Shown here: in pieces, positions 1,312 to 15,937 of the stretch
How the letters are laid out: each line of letters starts with the position of its first letter
Numbering within the stretch: the first letter of the stretch is position 1
Virus record (IMG/VR): IMGVR_UViG_3300034523_000150
Span: 1 to 28,840 of that record
Direction: 5' to 3' (one strand)
Origin: a virus
Length of the DNA stretch: 28,840 nt
The notes under the pieces: model-generated
Told to the model about the DNA's origin: nothing
Databases searched by the model: none
Seen by the model: only the letters and a program-made list of their open reading frames with translations
Program-made: the position numbers and the translations under genes

Positions 1312-1845
1312 CTACGGCCTCTTCATCCGTTCAACCACAGCCTCGCAGGCCAGGCCGGCTATTCGACTTCGCTCAAGCGCTTCCGCGAGGCCTCCCGCCA
1401 TTCGGTCAGCTTCCTCAAGCAATCCCCCGAGCACCACGACGGCAGAGGTTCCTGCCTGGCGCTGCTGGGCAGCGATGGCGTCGCAGGTGGCTCGGTGGCC
1501 ATCCCGCAGTCGGGCGATTTCCCCACGCAGCCCGCCAGCAGCAAACTCAGCAGCATCGGCCCGGCCTTGAGCCAATTCCAGTTGTTGTCGTGCATTCTCA
1601 CCTTCCTCGTCCGCCACGGCTTGGCGGCGCTGCTCTTCGGTTCTGGCCTGGGCGGCTGCGCGCCGGTCGCGCTCGGAAACCTCCAGGCGGTAATCGGACA
1701 AGGCCTTATCGGCTCGGGCGGTATTCGCGCGCGCATCAGCCGCAGCACCATCAGCGATCACAACCCGGTACTGCTGGCCGCCGGCAATCAGCACCAGGGC
1801 GATCAACCACCAGCACCAGGCCGGCACTGCGCCGAGCCAGGTCAT
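1312..1845 (-). CDS. Rz-like inner-membrane spanin (DUF2514-like)
   Basis: This encodes 177 residues. An N-terminal membrane anchor (about residues 8-24, AWCWWLIALVLIAGG) is followed by a long, charged, alanine- and arginine-rich coiled coil in the periplasmic part (about 30-125). That is the i-spanin layout. I-spanins span the periplasm with an outer-membrane partner and fuse the two membranes in the last step of lysis. The composition fits the DUF2514 spanins of Pseudomonas phages. The ATG overlaps the endolysin stop (ATGA at 1845-1842), so the two are translationally coupled. The Rz1 lipoprotein gene lies entirely inside this gene in another frame. Confidence 0.85.
   Translation of the reverse strand: MTWLGAVPAWCWWLIALVLIAGGQQYRVVIADGAAADARANTARADKALSDYRLEVSERDRRAAAQARTEEQRRQAVADEEGENARQQLELAQGRADAAEFAAGGLRGEIARLRDGHRATCDAIAAQQRQAGTSAVVVLGGLLEEADRMAGGLAEALERSRIAGLACEAVVERMKRP
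1359..1595 (-). CDS. Rz1-like outer-membrane spanin lipoprotein, nested in Rz
   Basis: This encodes 78 residues starting MHDNNWNWLK. I chose this start because GGAAGGTGAG lies just upstream of the ATG at 1595. It also places the signal sequence correctly: a hydrophobic stretch (MLLSLLLAGC) ends in a lipobox with Cys23 as the lipidation site. The mature part is short and rich in proline and serine (EPPATPSLPSS), as is usual for o-spanins. The gene is completely embedded in the Rz-like gene in a different reading frame, the classic Rz/Rz1 arrangement. It would form the outer-membrane half of the spanin complex. A longer reading of the frame to 1751 is not needed. Confidence 0.85.
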   Translation of the reverse strand: MHDNNWNWLKAGPMLLSLLLAGCVGKSPDCGMATEPPATPSLPSSARQEPLPSWCSGDCLRKLTEWREASRKRLSEVE

Positions 1846-2273
1846 GCTGTCTCCAGGAACAACTCGCGCTCAGCGGCGCGGCGCCGGGTCAGGCCGGCCA
1901 AAACCTGCCCGCCAGCCTTGTTCCAGCGCGAGAACTGTTCGGCAGCAGATTTGTAGTCGCCAGCATTGATCAGCCGGCGAAGCGTGGACGATTCGAGATT
2001 GGCCGCACCCAGGTTGTAGGTGAAGCTGATCAGCGCATCCCACTGGTTCTGGTTCAGCGGTGCGGTGATCAGTCGCTCCACCTCAGGCTCGAAGCGCTGC
2101 ACGTCGTTCAGCAGCATGCGCTCGGCCTGTTCCTTGCTGATCTTCATGCCGGCCTGCACGCCCCTGGTGGTTCCGTAGCCAATCGTCCAGACCCCGACTG
2201 AATCTTGATAGGCCTGCAGGCGCAGGCCCTCGAATGACTTGATGAGGCTCAAGCCGCGTTGCGATGTACGCAT
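1842..2273 (-). CDS. Endolysin, GH24 lysozyme
   Basis: This encodes 143 residues of the T4/P22-type lysozyme family, which cleaves the glycan strand of peptidoglycan. The catalytic triad is present with the spacing of T4 lysozyme: Glu15 (SFEG), Asp24 (YQDS) and Thr30 (WTIGYGTT). Later conserved parts such as NQNQWDALISFTYNLG and the TRRRAAERELF tail are also present. There is no signal peptide or signal-anchor segment, so export should depend on a canonical holin. A GGAG site lies 6 bases before the ATG, directly after a terminator hairpin. The two spanin genes follow with an overlapping start. The holin candidates are some 25 kb upstream. Confidence 0.93.
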   Translation of the reverse strand: MRTSQRGLSLIKSFEGLRLQAYQDSVGVWTIGYGTTRGVQAGMKISKEQAERMLLNDVQRFEPEVERLITAPLNQNQWDALISFTYNLGAANLESSTLRRLINAGDYKSAAEQFSRWNKAGGQVLAGLTRRRAAERELFLETA

Positions 2274-2655: not shown

Positions 2656-3201
2656 TCAGCGATTATTTGGGTGTATAGCCGCTCGCCACACTTTGACGAA
2701 TTCCTCGAATGTCATTCTGCGTCCGTCTAGGGTTGCTCGGATCGGCAGGAAAACTTCAACCATGCGAGCGTACATTGGTGCGAGAGGAGCATGCGAATTG
2801 GTAGATACCGAGCCGTGCAGACCAGTGAATTGGTTGAGGTCACTCACCAGATAGCGTGCCGCTCTTGAGTACTCGACCTCCGTGCCTCCATCGTATCCAG
2901 GGAATTCAGGAGAGGTTCCAAGGCCAATCTGTGAAATCAGTGCAATCTGATCTTCATCGAATTCTGCGAAGGATTCCTGCAGGAACTGATACATGTCGAG
3001 CGTATCTGATACCGCAGCGACATGCGGAGGCATAGAGCCATCGCCGTCCCGCAACCCATATTTCACATCGAGCACCCAGCAGTCCTGGGAGCCTATTGCT
3101 CGAACAACAGTGTCAGGGTCGTAGCTGTCCGTGATCTCGAGCTTTTTATAGATTTTGCACAACATTTCAATGATGAGCCTTTCGGTAGCCGTCGGCTGCA
3201 T
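2656..3201 (-). CDS. YfbU-family protein
   Basis: This encodes 181 residues starting MQPTATERLI. The start is supported by TAGGAG 7-8 bases upstream. The length and order of features match the YfbU family of E. coli: an N-terminal ERLIIEMLCKIYKKL helix, a DTLDMYQFLQESF helix at about 90 (YfbU has IMEMYHALHVSW), then PGYDGGTEVEYSRAARYLV (YfbU FDAATEARYLGYVRFMV). After that come a glycine/asparagine loop and APMYARMVEVF (YfbU TPMWEKYQRMLNVW). The biochemical role of YfbU proteins is not established. The gene is on the operon strand but is isolated by intergenic DNA and followed by its own terminator. It sits in the accessory patch, so it is probably a host-directed passenger rather than a virion gene. 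Confidence 0.75.
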   Translation of the reverse strand: MQPTATERLIIEMLCKIYKKLEITDSYDPDTVVRAIGSQDCWVLDVKYGLRDGDGSMPPHVAAVSDTLDMYQFLQESFAEFDEDQIALISQIGLGTSPEFPGYDGGTEVEYSRAARYLVSDLNQFTGLHGSVSTNSHAPLAPMYARMVEVFLPIRATLDGRRMTFEEFVKVWRAAIHPNNR

Positions 3202-3530
3202 GGCCTTGCTCCTAGCGAACGATTGCAGTGATCCATAAAGGCGGTAACAGGCAGTGCCAGGTAGCCACCAAAGAAGGAAATTGGGTCCCATTTTAGGCTC
3301 CAGGCCGCGAAGCTTACTGGCCGCGGCCGGCCGCAGGTTAGGAATTATGCCATGGATTATTCCGGCGGCGCTCCAGTATCATCGCGCATAGCGCGCCGCC
3401 CCATCGACGCTTCAGGGCTGCACCCGATTTTTCGTGTGAGCGGCCAGTGAGGCGCCTACCATCTTTATTGCTTTTCCACTCATGGTTTCAGTAAGGTTGC
3501 GGCCTTGGATGACAATTAGAGGAAATCTGG
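3202..3530. other. Intergenic region with divergent starts
   Basis: No convincing gene lies here. The region separates the minus-strand YfbU-family gene from the plus-strand WcbI-like gene, so it must hold promoters in both directions, but I see no clear -35/-10 pair. It contains the GC palindromic stretch GGCCGCGGCCGGCCGC near 3320. It also has an eight-pair inverted repeat (GGCGGCGC at 3364-3371, GCGCCGCC at 3393-3400) without a T run. Confidence 0.5.
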
Positions 3531-4892
3531 ATGACGGCAGCCCTGTTGGAAGAGGTGGTGGTCCGGCTGTATCGGTCGATTCTCGGTCGAGGCGTGGGCG
3601 AAAAAGAGCTCGCAGATCGCGTCCGGAGAGCGGAAATCGCCGATAATGAAGTTGGCGTACTTCTCGATATGGTTGATGAGCTACTAGCTTCCGAGGAGTT
3701 TGCACTCCGATACGGACATAATAAAAGCTTCCAGAAAGTCACAGACTCGGATATCTTTTATGCCTTTAAATTCCTTCTTGGTAGATTCCCAGAGAACCAA
3801 AGTATTTACACAGGAAAGAGAAAAAAAACCAGCACCACTTCTTTGATTGAAGAAATCGCCGCCTCAGACGAATTCAAAAATAATAAAATACTGAAAAATA
3901 TTATATCAATCCGAAGAAAACCCAAAGGATTTGATGAGATTCAATCAGGGAATTCTAGAAACAATAAAAATGTCCTGATTATTAGTGGTTGCCAAGGGCG
4001 AATGATCGCAGACCTTATGCAATCTGGCGGAGGGTTTGGATATGTGGAAAACATATTCCTAAGCAACGATCAGTTTAATAATTTCATAACCAGCAAAGGC
4101 AAAAGCCATGAAACACTATTGGCTTGGGCAGACATAATCTACACGCAAAAGCCTCGAATTTTTGATGTGCTCCAGGAGGATAAATCCTTAGCGCCAAAAA
4201 CTAGATTAATGCCACTGGCCGAGTATGTAGGGCTACAGCCAGATCAATGTTACCTCACGGACATTAGATCCGGGAAGGCTATCGTAGGGCCAATGGGTGA
4301 GTATCAGTCTGCAATACTGGCAGCGTCTTTCTTTGCTGGCCTGGACGTTGATACTGCTGTAAAAGCGTTCAATCGAGACGTTTACTCACAATTTGGTTAC
4401 GAGGAGCTCGCATCAGAATCTAAAGCTCGATTCTTATCTCAAGAGGAAAGCACTGGCTATCCATTGCAAAGTATGCTTGATCGATGGGAATCTTCTGGAA
4501 AATGGATGCGCACTATAAACCATCCAAAAAAAATGGTGCTTACCGACCTGGTGCGATTTGCTCTTGAGCAAGATGGAATTGAGCCAATTGCTAGCTTTGA
4601 TGAGTTTGTTATTGATGATTTAGCTGCAAACGTTGACTGGCCGCAATATGGCGGCTTTTATAAAGCTGAATCTGAAAACGAAAATCTTGACTTTAAACTT
4701 CCCAAGGCTTTTTCGCCTACAGCTAACTCAGCGGCGTTTCTAACCTTGAGGGAATATGCAAAAATGTTTTATCGAAGCATGGATGGATATTCACTTGACA
4801 TGATACTTTGCCATCAGATCGGGCGCAAAATTGATCTTGAAGTATATGTTGATTACCTTCGTAACAAGTTCTGCGCCAATAATAGCCAATGA
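3531..4892 (+). CDS. WcbI-like polysaccharide-modifying enzyme with DUF4214-like N-terminus
   Basis: This encodes 453 residues. The first 120 hold two DUF4214-like repeats (YRSILGR ... LLASEEF, then FKFLLGR ... IAASDEF). From about 148 the sequence follows the WcbI family: VLIISGCQG with Gly153-Cys154-Gln155, and a later NHPK at 330-333. WcbI proteins act in capsule or O-antigen biosynthesis and are thought to be acetyltransferase-like. The DNA is visibly more AT-rich than its surroundings and lies on the opposite strand, pointing to recent acquisition. GAGG lies about 9 bases before the ATG. Placed next to the tail-fibre genes, it may alter the host surface polysaccharide in the lysogen (lysogenic conversion). 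That role is inference. Confidence 0.72.
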   Translation: MTAALLEEVVVRLYRSILGRGVGEKELADRVRRAEIADNEVGVLLDMVDELLASEEFALRYGHNKSFQKVTDSDIFYAFKFLLGRFPENQSIYTGKRKKTSTTSLIEEIAASDEFKNNKILKNIISIRRKPKGFDEIQSGNSRNNKNVLIISGCQGRMIADLMQSGGGFGYVENIFLSNDQFNNFITSKGKSHETLLAWADIIYTQKPRIFDVLQEDKSLAPKTRLMPLAEYVGLQPDQCYLTDIRSGKAIVGPMGEYQSAILAASFFAGLDVDTAVKAFNRDVYSQFGYEELASESKARFLSQEESTGYPLQSMLDRWESSGKWMRTINHPKKMVLTDLVRFALEQDGIEPIASFDEFVIDDLAANVDWPQYGGFYKAESENENLDFKLPKAFSPTANSAAFLTLREYAKMFYRSMDGYSLDMILCHQIGRKIDLEVYVDYLRNKFCANNSQ

Positions 4893-4916
4893 ATAACCTA
4901 GCACATTTCTAGGTTG

Positions 4917-4955
4917 TCTAAAAAAGTGAGTAGCTCAGATCGAGTCTACTCACTT
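4917..4955 (-). terminator. Terminator of the tail operon
   Basis: On the minus strand a perfect ten-pair stem, AAGTGAGTAG with CTACTCACTT, has a 12-base loop and is followed by TTTTTTAGAC-type sequence. It starts 16 bases after the stop of the LamG-like gene. It should end most late transcription before the accessory patch. On the plus strand the stem is not followed by T residues, so the convergent WcbI-like gene would not stop here. A weaker five-pair hairpin lies at 4897-4913. Confidence 0.85.
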
Positions 4956-4970
4956 GCCCAGGACGCCCCT

Positions 4971-5729
4971 CTACACTGGAAGCTCTCGCGACGTCAGCAT
5001 CACCTGCCGCAACAACAAGACCTCGGTATCGCTGAGCGCTCGGGAATATGCCTTGATCTCCGCAATATCGCCGTTCATGTTGGATGCACCGACAGCGTTA
5101 GCACCAAGCGATACTCCATCCCAAAAAGCAGAAGACGTTTCACCTTCGGCCTTCACTTTCTCGATGAACAACTTCGACTTTGGGCCATCAAAGATGCATG
5201 CGAAGAAGAAGAAGCTTCCCACCGGGACTGCAACGGCAGAGAACATCTGCTCAATGGCTCCGCCGCCCATGCTGATCCGGCCAGAAGCGCCTCGACGCGC
5301 ATAAACGTATCCCCCGGCATCCCCTGTTCTGCCAGAAAAGATGTTTTCAGATCCGCTCGCCGGAGGTGTGGAGTTGAACTTAACAACTCCAGCCACGCTG
5401 ATTGGTGTGTTAATCCGAGGATCAACAGCGATGGCAGGATTCGTCCTCAGGGAGGTTGCTGGCGAAGTGGTAAACCGCACGGAAGCATGCCCGGAGGAAA
5501 CTCCATTAGCAGCGAATTTCGGCCGGTTCGATGATGCAATAACCAGGTTTACTTTGCTTCCCCAGCTGCCATCTGAGTTATTCCAAACGACTACGTCACT
5601 GCCATCGGCCGCAGCAATTCTCTCCGCGTTGTAATCAAGGAGCAGATCTGCCACAAGGTTTGGCAGGCTCGGAGTATCTTCGAGCGGGTCAGTCATTGCC
5701 TCAGTTGCCTGAATAACCAAGCAGTCCAT
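4971..5729 (-). CDS. LamG/concanavalin-like tail protein, probable receptor binding
   Basis: This encodes 252 residues. After a short N-terminal region (about 1-30), LVADLLLDYNAERI ... NNSDGSWG leads into a beta-rich fold. The C-terminal half resembles LamG/laminin-G-like lectin domains: FSGRTGDAGGYVYARR, SFFFFACIFDGPKSKLFI, and the typical ending GDIAEIKAYSRALSDTEV. Such domains at the end of tail-fibre modules usually bind host-surface glycans. AGGAGGTG lies directly before the ATG and overlaps the stop region of the fibre gene, so the two are co-translated. It is the last gene before a strong terminator. It could be a second fibre subunit or a capping adhesin for the preceding fibre. Confidence 0.7.
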   Translation of the reverse strand: MDCLVIQATEAMTDPLEDTPSLPNLVADLLLDYNAERIAAADGSDVVVWNNSDGSWGSKVNLVIASSNRPKFAANGVSSGHASVRFTTSPATSLRTNPAIAVDPRINTPISVAGVVKFNSTPPASGSENIFSGRTGDAGGYVYARRGASGRISMGGGAIEQMFSAVAVPVGSFFFFACIFDGPKSKLFIEKVKAEGETSSAFWDGVSLGANAVGASNMNGDIAEIKAYSRALSDTEVLLLRQVMLTSRELPV

Positions 5730-5740
5730 ACAGCCACCTC

Positions 5741-7456
5741 CTATTCATACCATCCAAGCCCAAGGATGAAGAGTCTAAGTTTTTCCGCAACAGCAGCTCT
5801 GGCAGTTGCATTCATGTGCGCTGAATTATCAATGGTCAGGGATGGCGGAATGTTCCCCATCGCCTGTTGATCCAAATCATCCTGAGTTGGAGTTATTCCG
5901 GTATCAGTCCATATTTCGCTTCCGGTCAAATACTCGGCAAGCTCGAAGAACTGCGCCCCGTATCTGGCTCTGTTAGCCGCGTTTACCGTAATAATGGCGA
6001 CGGACGCTGGGCTCCCTGGAACAGTTCCAACATTGGGGAACTGACTGAAGACAATGGCCCTTTTGTTTAAGGGCGAAAGGTAGTTGTAACAGGTGTCAAT
6101 CCGATCAATGATGCCAGCCGTGTCTAGCGCCTGGTTTATGTCATTCTTGCCAGGGTAAATGAATGTGACATCCGCCCGATGATCCGCCCCCATGATGGGG
6201 CTGAACGCGTACTCGCCCGGGCTAACGACCTCATCACCAGCGCCGGTCCGTGTGAATGTGAAAACCTGACTCGTTGATGTGATTCTGCCAAGTACGCCAT
6301 TCAGGTACCCGTCGGTTGGCTTGAATGATGCGCTTGGTCTCACGTTGCTACATGAGAGCTCAACCGAAGCCCCGACTGTTGCAGGTATTGATCCGCCGAC
6401 AACGGTCATCATCGCTGGAATGGCGCCCATCCTAGCGGCGACATGCGTTGAAAGTTCACTACCCTGGCCACCGTTGTAGTAGGTGGCACCGAAACTTTGA
6501 GCAAGATCGCCAAGCTCGTGGAACTGAGCAATTGTGGACGACCCCCACCCTGCCCAACTCAGCATGTTTGTGAGTATTGGTACTACCTCGCCGTCTTTGT
6601 TGACATAGGTATCAGTGCCAAGGATTTTGTATGTGGTTCCTCGCTTGTCAGGCGCGTAGTAGAGCTTCTTGAACGGTTTAAGAATCATGGGCCCAAGGCG
6701 TTTAGCCCAGCGCACCATTACGAATTCGGCCATTTGACCGTCTGAAGACCGCACAGCCAGATCTGTCAGTTTTCCGTACTTGTCGACGATGGCAAACAGC
6801 ATGCCGGGAAAGCCACGGAGCACAGTTCCAAGCCGCTCGCGGATCAAGTGCAAGGACCAATCCGTTGGACCGCCATCGCTCGCCCGAACACCAAGCCAGG
6901 TCAGGCGCCTCAGAAAGTCTATGAATTGGAAGAGTCGCTTCTCTCCTTCGCCAGGGACGCTTTCAATTTTCGAGCGCGCCGGATCATTGGCCAGCGCATC
7001 CAGCTTCGACGAAGATGCTGGCTGCTCTTGAAACCTGATCCATGCTCCAGCCGACAGGCTCCAGAAGTACCATCCATTGAGACTCTCATCGGGGTCTGCG
7101 TCCACGATGCCGACAACCGCATCGCGAGTTTGAGGCATGCCGAGCAGTTCTTCATACGTGTCGGCATGCTTGTTGTTCAGGTCATCGCCCAGATTGGCGG
7201 CCGTTTCCTGCATTTCCTCAATGGCCGCGTCCGCCGTCGAGTTGACGGCCTCCTTGGCAGCGTTGACGGTTGGGTCTATCTGGGCCTTCGTGTCGATAAC
7301 AATATTGTGAAATGCCTGAACCGTGTATCGATCTCGCTCGAAACGATCTTTGGCAGTTTCCTCCAGGCTGTTCATGATCTCGTCGAGGATGAGCGCGTTA
7401 TCGTTCAGGTCCCGCGGGTCATTGCTAGGTGCCGGGTTGTTTGTGTTGTGGCGCAT
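5741..7456 (-). CDS. Tail fibre with SGNH-hydrolase-like domain
   Basis: This encodes 571 residues starting MRHNTNNPAP. The start is fixed by CCGGAGA just upstream. The N-terminal 100 residues are helical with an alanine-rich coiled coil (DPTVNAAKEAVNSTADAAIEE), fitting virion attachment. A middle domain (about 100-290) is unassigned. From about 295 the blocks of an SGNH/GDSL esterase appear: GWGSST (Ser306/Ser307), the YYNGGQG glycine block near 330, GKND at 436-439 and DNSAH at 543-547 with the catalytic-type Asp and His. The usual Asp of GDS is a serine here. Such phage domains deacetylate or cleave surface polysaccharide. The gene is preceded by a terminator hairpin. Confidence 0.8.
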   Translation of the reverse strand: MRHNTNNPAPSNDPRDLNDNALILDEIMNSLEETAKDRFERDRYTVQAFHNIVIDTKAQIDPTVNAAKEAVNSTADAAIEEMQETAANLGDDLNNKHADTYEELLGMPQTRDAVVGIVDADPDESLNGWYFWSLSAGAWIRFQEQPASSSKLDALANDPARSKIESVPGEGEKRLFQFIDFLRRLTWLGVRASDGGPTDWSLHLIRERLGTVLRGFPGMLFAIVDKYGKLTDLAVRSSDGQMAEFVMVRWAKRLGPMILKPFKKLYYAPDKRGTTYKILGTDTYVNKDGEVVPILTNMLSWAGWGSSTIAQFHELGDLAQSFGATYYNGGQGSELSTHVAARMGAIPAMMTVVGGSIPATVGASVELSCSNVRPSASFKPTDGYLNGVLGRITSTSQVFTFTRTGAGDEVVSPGEYAFSPIMGADHRADVTFIYPGKNDINQALDTAGIIDRIDTCYNYLSPLNKRAIVFSQFPNVGTVPGSPASVAIITVNAANRARYGAQFFELAEYLTGSEIWTDTGITPTQDDLDQQAMGNIPPSLTIDNSAHMNATARAAVAEKLRLFILGLGWYE

Positions 7457-7512: not shown

Positions 7513-10500
7513 TCAAGCCGGCGGGAATTGGTCGTCGTAGGTGTAAACGCGGGCATCGTAGGGCATGCCCTTCATGGACACGTTCCCGTTTTGACCGGGG
7601 TCAGAACTGGTGATCAACACCGGATATGCCCATCTGGATGCAGGCCCAAACAGGATGTGCGGCGGCTCCAGTGGGCCATCGACTACGGGCATGAAATCGA
7701 GCGCGTCTACACGGACCGTGTACTGATCCACCTGCGTGGCGGTCCACGGCCCAGACAGCGTGCCGTCCAGCTTGCGCACGCCAATCAGGTGCTCGCCGCC
7801 TGCGCTGAAATCCAATGGCTCTGATGCGATCAACATGGTCCCCAACCCGGTAACCTGGAAGTCCAGCAAGATTGCACTCTGGCAACGCTTTGGGGCGTCA
7901 TCTGCGACGGCTGCGAAGCTGAGGTAGCCGCTGTTGCTGCCGTCCATCTCGGTTTCCCAGGTGTATGTATCGGTTCTGAACTTCTGGTGGCCGCGCCGGC
8001 GCATGCCGATGCGCCAGGCCCTGGTCCTGTCGCTGATTCCAGGCATTTTGACCTTCTCGACCTTGTTGCCCAGGTCACCGGGCCAACGGCACTCGACCGT
8101 CTCCCATGCCCAAGTGGTGCGCGAGAAGAACTCCACATCCACCCCGTCGAAGTCGTTGATCGACGGCATGGCGCCGCTGATCTTCAGCATCTTGGTCATG
8201 TTCTGTGGCGAGTAGGTCTGGGTTTTCGGGCCGTAGGTCACATCGAACGCGGCGCGGGCACTGTCACGAACCGGGCGCAGCAGGCCCCGGAAAGTCACAA
8301 GTTCCGCGAAGCCGCAGGCCAAAGCGTTGTTCACCATGTCCTTGACGGTGATCGTCGAATCCAGCGTCTCGTCGTAGGTGTCACCCCTCGCTACACACAG
8401 ATCGTGGAAGGCGTGCCATTCAGGCAGATCAAGGTCTTCATTGGTGTAACCGCGCTGTTTGAGCTGGTGGATGCACCAAGGGGCGATATCCCGGGTAGGG
8501 CCCTTGCTCGCATCCATAAGCGGCAAGATGCGGGTTGCTTCAACATTCACCTGACTCTCGGACTGCGCAGATAGCCTGTCACCACCCCTGATGTTGCAGG
8601 TCATCACAGTCAAACCGGGATAGCTGATGGGGGAGTTCAGCATGCGCCCACGCAGATCTGTCCAGGTGGCATCGTCGCGGGCTTCGTCGTTTATCCGCCC
8701 TGGGCGATCTTTGTACAGTTTTCGCACGCGGGCCTCTGCGCGCATCGCATAGGGCAGGAAGATCCTCTCAGTGAAACCCTGAGCGTCCAGCGAGCCGCCA
8801 ATTTTCTCCAGTTCAATGACAGTCCATGCTCCGGCCACGTCCATGTCTCGGTACTCGAACACGTAGTAGGTCGGAATCTCGTATATCTGCCCTTCCCGGC
8901 CGATACCAGCCAAGCCGTTGGCGTAGGTGACCGTCCACTCCAGTTCGGTGACCTTCTCGTTCTCCGGGCAGCAGGCAAATGGCCCCCGGTATCCGCCCTG
9001 CAGGTTTGAAGCGTCCAGCGTAATGAGGCCGTTCACCGTCTGCATGGCGTTGAAGCCAGGCCAGCCAGCGTCAGTCGAGCCAGAGGAGGTCAGGCGCTCC
9101 ACCTCGAGCAGGCTGGTGCTGAAGGCCGTGATCCGGTAACGCAGCCCGCGTGGGCCGATGGTTGCCAGCCCCTGCCCCAGCGCCAGGCCGACCACCGGTG
9201 CACCACCGTCATAATCCAGCGTCATTTCCGCTGGCTGCTCTGGAGTGCCGCTAGTGGTTGCTGCACCGGTGACACCTACCGGGGAGGAGCCGAGGATGGT
9301 TGAAGCACCGGTGGCAGAGATGGCCTGGCCACTAAACGGTGTCAATTCCACGAAACGCAACCGACCACTGCTCTGCTGAGCCTCGAACGGCAATCCGCTG
9401 AGCTGAGTGTTCAGCGCTGCTACCAGGCCAGCCAGATCGGTTGTGGCCGTGGTCAGCGTGACGGGATAGGTAGAGCTTCCGCGCACCAGGTTGAAGGTGA
9501 GCGGCGTGACGTTGAAGTCGTAGCGAGTTGGCGCCGCCGATCCGGTGCGTGTCGATGCTGCGCCAGGGTTGGCCGGTACCGCCGGTGTGTATGGGGTGTA
9601 GCTGTGCACCACGTACAACCCCGCGTTCGCACCCGCTACCTCGATGAGCATGCCCGCCGTGGGGTTCAGCATTTCCAGCGGGCCACGGATGATGTCGCGT
9701 CCGGCACCGCCGTCGATCACCGTGTAGGTGTAAGGCGCAAGCACGCGGATGATGATCCCGTTCGACCAGTCGGCCGGGAACTGGCCTGAGCCCGCCGGAA
9801 CGCTGATGGTGTCGCCAACGAACTGGTAGGCAGAGGCCGTGGCCGAACGGGTGAGCTCGGTAGCCATCGTCAGTTCCAAACCGGCCGAACCGCTCGAGCT
9901 GGCCCCTACCTCTGGCACGTTGAACCAGTTGATGTGAGCCGGATCTGCCGAAAGGTCAGCACCTGGCGGGTAGATCGTGAACGAAGCGTCTGCGCCGAGG
10001 GATATCAGTGGGGTTTCGCCAACCTTCACCTTGGTCGATGGGACTTCGTATTCGCCCTCACCGATGTAGAGCAGCATTTCGACGCGCTGGTCACGGGGAG
10101 CCAGGTGGTATCGGCGTGGTTGGGTCAGATACGACGGGTAAACCCGCTGGTGGCCGGCGATCTGCCGCACCGGGTCGCCCAGCTTGACCTTGTTGCCCTT
10201 GGCGCTGGCCTCGGTCAGTGGGTCGCCCTGCTGGGTGCCGGCGCTGGATGGCATGCCGGGCATCTTGGGCATGATCGACTTCAGCACCGCCTTGGCGCCT
10301 TTGAACAGGGCGAAGGTGATGGAGAATGGATCGGTGCCCTTCGGCTCGCGGTAGATCTGCAGCAAGTCGGCAGGCTTGAACTTCACCTTGTGCCACAGGT
10401 GATGCTCGATCACCTCATCATTGAGGACAACGCTGATTGGCGGGCTTTCCCGGCGCTCGTAGGACGGGGCCAGGGATTTCAGCCACGCCTCAATGGTCAT

Positions 10501-10569
10501 GCGGCGGTCGGTCTTCCAGGTGCCGAGCGGCGCCGTGTTGCTCAGCTTGTTCGGGTAAAATTCGATCAT
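7513..10569 (-). CDS. Tail tip hub, lambda J / TipJ family
   Basis: This encodes 1018 residues starting MIEFYPNKLS. The start overlaps the stop of the C40 peptidase gene (ATGA). The N-terminal 110 residues (SVVLNDEVIEHHLW ... KPADLLQIYREP ... FALFKGAKAVLKSI) resemble the beta-grasp tail assembly protein gpI. Beta-rich modules follow, and then the conserved hub region, with FEYRDMDVAGAWTVIEL, a long helical part DMVNNALACGFAELV ... LRPVRDSARAAFDVTYG, and a C-terminal beta region. Length and position match TipJ-type host-specificity proteins, which form the central baseplate hub and contact the host. No separate gpI gene is present. Confidence 0.88.
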   Translation of the reverse strand: MIEFYPNKLSNTAPLGTWKTDRRMTIEAWLKSLAPSYERRESPPISVVLNDEVIEHHLWHKVKFKPADLLQIYREPKGTDPFSITFALFKGAKAVLKSIMPKMPGMPSSAGTQQGDPLTEASAKGNKVKLGDPVRQIAGHQRVYPSYLTQPRRYHLAPRDQRVEMLLYIGEGEYEVPSTKVKVGETPLISLGADASFTIYPPGADLSADPAHINWFNVPEVGASSSGSAGLELTMATELTRSATASAYQFVGDTISVPAGSGQFPADWSNGIIIRVLAPYTYTVIDGGAGRDIIRGPLEMLNPTAGMLIEVAGANAGLYVVHSYTPYTPAVPANPGAASTRTGSAAPTRYDFNVTPLTFNLVRGSSTYPVTLTTATTDLAGLVAALNTQLSGLPFEAQQSSGRLRFVELTPFSGQAISATGASTILGSSPVGVTGAATTSGTPEQPAEMTLDYDGGAPVVGLALGQGLATIGPRGLRYRITAFSTSLLEVERLTSSGSTDAGWPGFNAMQTVNGLITLDASNLQGGYRGPFACCPENEKVTELEWTVTYANGLAGIGREGQIYEIPTYYVFEYRDMDVAGAWTVIELEKIGGSLDAQGFTERIFLPYAMRAEARVRKLYKDRPGRINDEARDDATWTDLRGRMLNSPISYPGLTVMTCNIRGGDRLSAQSESQVNVEATRILPLMDASKGPTRDIAPWCIHQLKQRGYTNEDLDLPEWHAFHDLCVARGDTYDETLDSTITVKDMVNNALACGFAELVTFRGLLRPVRDSARAAFDVTYGPKTQTYSPQNMTKMLKISGAMPSINDFDGVDVEFFSRTTWAWETVECRWPGDLGNKVEKVKMPGISDRTRAWRIGMRRRGHQKFRTDTYTWETEMDGSNSGYLSFAAVADDAPKRCQSAILLDFQVTGLGTMLIASEPLDFSAGGEHLIGVRKLDGTLSGPWTATQVDQYTVRVDALDFMPVVDGPLEPPHILFGPASRWAYPVLITSSDPGQNGNVSMKGMPYDARVYTYDDQFPPA

Positions 10570-10943
10570 CGGTAATACACCACCCTTGGGTGAGCGGCCT
10601 CGAACTCGCCAGTCGTCCGGAGGCATGCGCCGCCGGGGTTTGTGTCCAGCACCTTCAACCTGCCCTCGCTTTCCACCACCACGCCGACATGCAGACACAG
10701 GGAGCCCCGGAACACGGCGGCAATCGCCCCGGGTTCTGGTGCGCACTCCTCCATGCCCTGCCGCAGGTCGTGATAGGCCTCGGTGTTGGCCCTGAGCTTG
10801 TTCTTGCCCACGGCACCGAGGCTTGGCAGCAGCGGCAGGCCGAACAGCTCATGGCGCACGGCGATGCACAGCCCCCAGCAATCGAAGGCAATAGGCCCCC
10901 GTGCACCCTCGCGATACGGGGCGCGCATGAATTTCTCGATCAT
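10566..10943 (-). CDS. NlpC/P60 (C40) tail-tip peptidase
   Basis: This encodes 125 residues. The catalytic cysteine is in FDCWGLC (Cys22) and the histidine in CLHVGVVV (His85), the normal spacing for C40 peptidases, with a polar third residue expected in the following strand. It corresponds to the C-terminal half of lambda gpK. These proteins assemble at the tail tip and are thought to cut peptidoglycan cross-links during DNA entry. It follows the DUF1833 gene by 2 bases and overlaps the hub start. A second ATG lies at codon 6. Neither start has a strong ribosome binding site, so coupling to the upstream gene is likely. Confidence 0.9.
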   Translation of the reverse strand: MIEKFMRAPYREGARGPIAFDCWGLCIAVRHELFGLPLLPSLGAVGKNKLRANTEAYHDLRQGMEECAPEPGAIAAVFRGSLCLHVGVVVESEGRLKVLDTNPGGACLRTTGEFEAAHPRVVYYR

Positions 10944-15523: not shown

Positions 15524-15937
15524 TCAGGTCGCTGGTAGCTCACTGCCGCAGTGTTTGCACTTGATGGCTGCTGCCATCACCTGTTCAGCGCAGAATGGGC
15601 AGGTCTTCTTTTCGGGGGTGTCAGCCAATGGCATTGGCTCTGCTGTCGACGCCTGGCCGACCACCACGGCCTCTTCTGGTTTCTTGAAGGCCCAGATGAG
15701 TGCAGCAACCCACCCAATGATGGTCCACCCCAGAAAGAGGTTAAGCACGGCGATCGACTGGAGATTGCTCTTCTTCCTGATCCACGCCTCAAACGTCGGC
15801 AGCAGGTACAGCGCCGGCACAAAGAACAAAGCGCTGAACGCAATGGCTACGCCAAGAGAGTTAAGCGCTGGCTCTCTGCCCATGGATACGCTGTAGGCGG
15901 CGAAGAAGGCCAGAATTACGAATCTGACAAAGAACAT
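15524..15937 (-). CDS. Superinfection-immunity-like membrane protein with zinc ribbon
   Basis: This encodes 137 residues. It has three hydrophobic segments (about 1-18, 28-47 and 64-84). The last, [21 protein letters not shown], carries the signature of the T4 Imm-like superinfection immunity family. A linker leads to a C-terminal zinc ribbon, CPFC (113-116) and CKHC (127-130). Imm-type proteins sit in the inner membrane and block DNA entry by related phages. GGAG lies just before the ATG at 15937. It is placed on the operon strand between the tail chaperones and the tape measure, where virion genes are expected. It is therefore either expressed late or from its own promoter, and no clear promoter is visible. 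A generic membrane role is an alternative. Confidence 0.72.

What the first reader, a model, noticed from the sequence alone, without database searches (positions are those of the whole stretch)
3531..7456. Possible eraser/writer pair: SGNH esterase fibre beside a WcbI-like enzyme
The tail fibre carries the block pattern of an SGNH hydrolase, a fold that phages use to deacetylate surface polysaccharide. Across one terminator sits an AT-rich, opposite-strand WcbI-like gene of a family tied to capsule/O-antigen modification. The phage may remove a group to infect and the lysogen may add or change one to exclude relatives. This functional link is inference from adjacency and family.
Basis: partly seen in the sequence, partly recalled or inferred. 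Interest (0 to 1): 0.7.

Follow-up and report, generated by a model that had tools for sequence, protein, structure and literature searches.

The report
WcbI gene in prophage seroconversion slot
This Pseudomonas prophage has an esterase-tipped tail fibre and, in the exact gene slot where related phages such as D3 keep enzymes that re-coat their host to keep other phages out, it carries a capsule-modification gene of a family (WcbI) not seen before in catalogued phages; the two enzymes are probably neighbours because of the slot, not a matched remove/add pair.

Summary
Both parts of the observation are real. The fibre (5741-7456, -) ends in an SGNH esterase domain: all four catalytic blocks are invariant in five homologues, and the predicted fold matches carbohydrate O-acetylesterases (Z about 16). 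The opposite-strand AT-rich gene (3531-4892, +; 43% GC against 61%) is a WcbI member that keeps the CoA-binding Cys and His.

The location explains more than the pairing does. In 50 dereplicated loci, the interval between fibre and lysis genes is an exchange slot. It holds unrelated surface-glycan enzymes: AT3, AT3-SGNH, hexapeptide acyltransferases, an O-antigen polymerase and, here, WcbI. All 7 AT3 genes in 50 records fall in it, although it makes up 3% of their bases. Phage D3 keeps its experimentally known seroconversion genes (iap, oac, wzy-beta) in the same slot. So the WcbI gene is most likely a lysogenic-conversion gene that changes the host's surface polysaccharide and excludes relatives.

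Acyltransferase cargo is not enriched beside esterase fibres (odds ratio 0.26; one-sided p 0.99), and the three relatives with this fibre and a visible slot carry no recognisable acyltransferase. This is a new cargo type in a known kind of locus.

The parts
3531..4892 (+). WcbI-family gene, 453 aa: about 147-aa N-terminal extension (weak PBS-linker-like match) plus WcbI domain (res. 148-351) with Cys154-Gln and His331-Pro; AT-rich; slot cargo
4971..5729 (-).
5741..7456 (-). tail fibre, 571 aa: conserved N-terminal anchor (res. 1-155), low-confidence linker, C-terminal SGNH esterase domain (res. 295-571) with a strand-rich insertion at about 345-420
4915..4958 (-). intrinsic terminator of the fibre/LamG transcript (13-pair hairpin followed by U6)
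7513..10746 (-). J-like host-specificity tail protein, 92-94% identical to close relatives; with the fibre, the anchor of the slot on one side
2656..3291 (-). YfbU-domain gene (PHROG 6084), also inside the slot
1842..2273 (-). endolysin; anchor of the slot on the other side
1312..1845 (-). Rz-like spanin

Best explanation
The WcbI-family gene is a lysogenic-conversion (seroconversion-type) moron lodged in the fibre-to-lysis exchange slot of a lambda-like Pseudomonas prophage, the same slot that holds iap/oac/wzy-beta in phage D3. Expressed from the prophage, the enzyme most likely uses acyl-CoA (probably acetyl-CoA) to alter the host's O-antigen or another surface glycan, so that phages with similar receptors adsorb poorly. 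Independently, the phage's own fibre binds a surface glycan and probably de-O-acetylates it during adsorption. The two genes are neighbours because the slot lies directly downstream of the swappable fibre, not because they act on the same group. Shown: both families, the catalytic residues, the fold of the fibre domain, the slot and its cargo spectrum, and the foreign composition. Inferred: enzyme activities, glycan target, expression in the lysogen, exclusion.
For: Pfam WcbI far above cut-off. Cys14 and His201, which hold CoA in B. pseudomallei WcbI (PMC4104973), correspond to Cys154 and His331 (alignment; profile hit to 4bqn E = 3.7e-9). Slot cargo in relatives: AT3 in L008/L048, L019, L062; AT3-SGNH in L031, L041, L056, L083; hexapeptide transferases in L038/L039, L049, L057/L059; Wzy-like in L030. 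All 7 AT3 genes above cut-off in 50 relative records (2.19 Mb) lie in the slot, which is 3% of the bases, chance about 2e-11. D3 places iap, oac (AT3-SGNH) and wzy-beta between fibre and endolysin, and D3 Oac is reported to alter LPS so that phage cannot bind (PMC11436027). PAJU2 has an AT3-SGNH gene in the same place. A second, unrelated phage contig (L114) has WcbI convergent to its fibre gene. 43% GC and no WcbI in 299 Pseudomonas genomes indicate recent import.
Against: WcbI has never shown acetyltransferase activity in vitro and may need a partner (PMC4104973). No sigma-70-type promoter was found upstream of the gene. Its structure could not be modelled with confidence (pLDDT 40). About 7 of the 18 cargo genes recognised in slots have no evident glycan function, so the slot is not exclusively for surface modification.
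Confidence: 0.75

Rival explanations
1. Matched eraser/writer pair: the fibre esterase removes an acyl group needed or tolerated for infection, and the lysogen's WcbI adds the same or a competing group to exclude relatives; the two co-evolve.
For: Both enzyme types are present within 1 kb, and both plausibly act on acylated polysaccharide. SGNH fibres of Klebsiella prophages are proven esterases, and prophages there often encode predicted acetyltransferases (PMC13123978). Two other esterase-fibre relatives carry hexapeptide acyltransferases (L038, L049).
Against: No positive association across 50 dereplicated loci: 3 of 28 esterase-fibre against 7 of 22 other-fibre loci, one-sided p 0.99, and 0.86-0.99 in the other codings. 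Relatives with the same fibre lack any recognisable acyltransferase (L013, L047, L086). D3 and PAJU2 pair acyltransferases with beta-helix/pectate-lyase fibres. L114's WcbI has no detectable esterase fibre. An eraser of the same group would undo the exclusion.
Confidence: 0.12
2. Passenger or host-benefit moron: the WcbI gene changes a surface glycan for host fitness (immune, protist or stress reasons) with no role in phage exclusion, or is a decaying import.
For: The slot also holds cargo without obvious surface function: trypsin-like protease (L082), asparagine-synthase-like protein (L016), alpha/beta-hydrolase-like protein (L024, by inspection). No promoter recognised.
Against: The ORF is intact at 453 codons with its key residues conserved, and identified cargo is dominated by glycan modification.
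Confidence: 0.13

Closest known systems
Pseudomonas phage D3 seroconversion cassette (iap, oac, wzy-beta; AF165214) and PAJU2 ORF024
   Same: Same slot: J-like protein, fibre, surface-modifying gene(s) often on the opposite strand, then endolysin; tail J protein homologous at 44-46%.
   Different: D3 and PAJU2 use membrane AT3-SGNH acyltransferases (and Wzy-beta in D3) beside beta-helix fibres; here a soluble WcbI-family protein sits beside an SGNH fibre.
WcbI of Burkholderia pseudomallei capsule (PDB 4bqn)
   Same: Same Pfam family; Cys14/His201 CoA-contact residues conserved as Cys154/His331.
   Different: Low identity, extra N-terminal ~147-aa extension, phage-borne and solitary instead of inside a capsule cluster. 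Activity unproven in both.
SGNH-domain receptor-binding proteins of temperate phages (Klebsiella prophage fibres; coliphage G7C gp63.1)
   Same: Tail fibre with a C-terminal SGNH domain; proven esterases in those phages (PMC13123978).
   Different: Different anchor and SGNH subfamily (PHROG 11419); here with a strand-rich insertion and a DxxxH spacing in block V; activity untested.
L114 (IMGVR_UViG_3300047496_000230)
   Same: WcbI gene immediately past, and convergent to, the fibre gene of a phage contig.
   Different: Unrelated tail module; WcbI without the N-terminal extension, next to a GT/GSCFA protein; fibre has no Pfam domain.

Membership tests
WcbI (PF18588) | Profile match above the curated cut-off | tested here: met
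   79.9 bits against 29.2, E = 2.6e-22
WcbI (PF18588) | Cys in G/S-x-CQ motif and His of NHP that contact CoA | tested here: met
   Cys154-Gln155 and Asn330-His331-Pro332 aligned with homologues; residues from PMC4104973
WcbI (PF18588) | WcbI fold | tested here: inconclusive
   AlphaFold2 model too poor, pLDDT 40
WcbI (PF18588) | CoA binding / acyl transfer to a surface glycan | not testable with these tools
   needs biochemistry
SGNH hydrolase / esterase tail fibre | Four blocks with Ser, Gly, Asn, Asp-His | tested here: met
   Invariant in 5 homologues
SGNH hydrolase / esterase tail fibre | SGNH fold | tested here: met
   Foldseek top hit Ape1 O-acetylesterase E = 5e-5; VIA-align Z about 16 over about 170 residues to GDSL/carbohydrate esterases
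SGNH hydrolase / esterase tail fibre | Esterase activity on host glycan | not testable with these tools
   needs assay
D3-type seroconversion locus | Gene between fibre and lysis genes of a D3-related tail module | tested here: met
D3-type seroconversion locus | Encodes a surface-glycan-modifying enzyme | tested here: met
   By family only: WcbI
D3-type seroconversion locus | Changes host O-antigen and blocks adsorption | not testable with these tools
   needs lysogen comparison
Eraser/writer pair | Esterase fibre and acyltransferase cargo co-occur more than chance among relatives | tested here: not met
   Odds ratio 0.26, one-sided p 0.99

The most novel reading that the evidence does not exclude
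In this phage the fibre esterase and the WcbI enzyme act on the same acylated glycan at different positions, so that the lysogen is re-coated with a modification the esterase cannot remove: a genuine remove-and-rewrite module, and the first phage use of a WcbI enzyme for exclusion.
Probability: 0.12. Interest if true: 0.75.

Novelty: new variant of a known kind. Interest (0 to 1): 0.42.

Why it matters
It extends the D3 seroconversion slot to a large group of environmental Pseudomonas prophages as a general exchange site for surface-glycan enzymes. It also adds WcbI, an enzyme family of disputed activity known from bacterial capsule clusters, to the phage lysogenic-conversion repertoire. A small solitary phage WcbI could help to find out what WcbI does. 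Reading the slot in other prophages gives an easy way to find new serotype-converting enzymes.

Tried and rejected
Close relatives of the WcbI protein: none in viral contigs, genome contigs or 50,697 phage records; an 11-sequence profile found one distant phage case, L114. WcbI as a normal host gene carried over from the chromosome: rejected, since none was found in 299 Pseudomonas genomes, and the same search did find the window's own copy. A further search of 369 genomes of the class with the single protein P0001 was empty but had no positive control, so it is not used. Gene lying outside the prophage: rejected, since endolysin and Rz follow it. Pairing by co-variation: rejected under the main coding and four others. 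AlphaFold2 of the WcbI protein from two sequences was too poor to search with. The simple terminator scan missed the main hairpin; folding recovered it.

Full report
The window is a 28.8-kb virus record holding the late genes of a lambda-like prophage, mostly on the minus strand: terminase, head and tail genes, tape measure, a J-like protein at 7513-10746, a tail fibre at 5741-7456, a LamG-like ORF at 4971-5729, then, on the plus strand, the gene in question at 3531-4892, then a YfbU-domain gene, endolysin and Rz. Its J protein is 92-94% identical to that of close relatives, and the relatives with named hosts are all Pseudomonas.

The fibre. Residues 1-155 are an anchor shared (65-79% identity) with fibres that have quite different tips, so the tip is a swappable module. 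The C-terminal part has no Pfam hit, but in an alignment with four full-length homologues (37-40% identity) all SGNH blocks are invariant: W304-G-S-S, G329..G332-x-E334, GKND at 436-439 and D543..H547. AlphaFold2 from this shallow alignment models residues 300-570 moderately (block means mostly about 60-90, with weaker stretches). Foldseek's best PDB match is the peptidoglycan O-acetylesterase Ape1, followed by PAF acetylhydrolase, sialate O-acetylesterase and acetylxylan esterase. VIA-align gives Z about 16 over about 170 residues for many GDSL and carbohydrate esterases.

The WcbI gene. The 453-aa product matches PF18588 at E = 2.6e-22. The WcbI crystal structure paper (PMC4104973) names Cys14 and His201 as contacts of the CoA thiol or acetyl; the corresponding Cys154-Gln and Asn-His331-Pro are conserved here, and a profile of eleven members recovers the B. 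pseudomallei structure 4bqn. Note that WcbI has shown CoA binding but no transferase activity in vitro. The N-terminal ~147 aa are an extra extension. GC is 43%, against 61% for the phage. No WcbI was found in 299 Pseudomonas genomes, while 14 of 398 genomes of the phylum have one. The protein was absent from 50,697 phage records with three different WcbI queries, and no paper in the open library mentions both WcbI and phage.

The slot. I collected 84 loci with a related J protein and read the interval between fibre and lysis genes. Many have nothing there but a ~250-aa ORF; at least 18 of 50 dereplicated loci have larger, mostly AT-richer cargo, commonly on the opposite strand. Pfam identifies most of it as surface-glycan enzymes of unrelated families: Acyl_transf_3 (L008/L048, with a glucuronyl C5-epimerase-domain protein; L019; L062), AT3 fused to SGNH (L031, L041, L056, L083), hexapeptide acyltransferases (L038/L039, L049, L057/L059), and a Wzy-like O-antigen polymerase (L030, weak). 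The position is specific: searching 50 whole relative records for AT3 gave seven genes above cut-off, and comparison of their coordinates shows all seven inside the slot, which covers about 3% of the bases; chance about 2e-11 if placement were random. A WcbI search of the same 50 records found none.

The link to known biology. The J protein of the P. aeruginosa phages D3 and PAJU2 is 44-46% identical. D3 has fibre orf27, then iap, the O-antigen acetylase oac, wzy-beta and orf30.5, then endolysin orf31; PAJU2 has fibre, then an opposite-strand AT3-SGNH acyltransferase and two further ORFs, then endolysin. D3's O-acetylase is reported to modify LPS so that phage can no longer bind (PMC11436027). 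The WcbI gene of the window therefore occupies the D3 seroconversion site. A second phage contig with an unrelated tail module, L114, has WcbI (E = 1.6e-22) plus a GT/GSCFA protein immediately past its fibre gene and convergent to it, an independent arrival of WcbI in an equivalent position.

The pairing. I classed fibres by Pfam, motif and cluster membership and cargo by Pfam, and dereplicated to 50 loci. Esterase fibre with acyltransferase cargo: 3 of 28; other fibre with acyltransferase cargo: 7 of 22 (odds ratio 0.26, one-sided p for enrichment 0.99). Other codings, including D3 and PAJU2, give 0.86-0.99. Relatives carrying the window's own fibre type have an empty slot (L047, L086), an unrelated, apparently secreted protein (L013) or a cut contig (L002). 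So the adjacency is explained by two independently exchanged modules lying next to each other. The esterase class of one fibre cluster rests on weak SASA similarity, and loci are not phylogenetically independent, so the apparent negative association should not be over-read; the positive association needed for the pair is absent.

Mechanism. Most likely the enzyme modifies a surface glycan of the lysogen from acyl-CoA and reduces adsorption of related phages, as D3 Oac does, while the fibre esterase serves entry. If both acted on the same acyl group the fibre would undo the protection, so a true pair would need different positions. None of the activities has been tested for these proteins.

Noticed in passing
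L114:583-3669: Unrelated phage contig with WcbI next to a glycosyltransferase/GSCFA fusion protein, convergent to the fibre gene; possible two-gene conversion cassette.
   Followed up: partly
L008:15563-18373: Slot of a Pseudomonas taiwanensis prophage holds a glucuronyl C5-epimerase-domain protein plus an AT3 acyltransferase, beside a pectate-lyase-type fibre like that of D3.
   Followed up: partly
L013:15697-16923: 408-aa, AT-rich, apparently secreted protein without Pfam hit in the slot of a prophage with the same fibre type as the window.
   Followed up: no
L023:13231-15309: Fibre with 79% identical anchor but a different SGNH (GDSL) tip: several unrelated SGNH tips are swapped on the same anchor.
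   Followed up: partly
window 2656-3291 (-): YfbU-domain gene (PHROG 6084) in the same slot; not found in the related loci.
   Followed up: no
window 15524-15937 (-): ORF matching a PHROG annotated as immunity to superinfection (phrog_1039, E = 5e-20) between tape measure and tail assembly genes.
   Followed up: no
L045:15832-17109: Slot cargo is a second SGNH/GDSL hydrolase beside an SGNH fibre.
   Followed up: no
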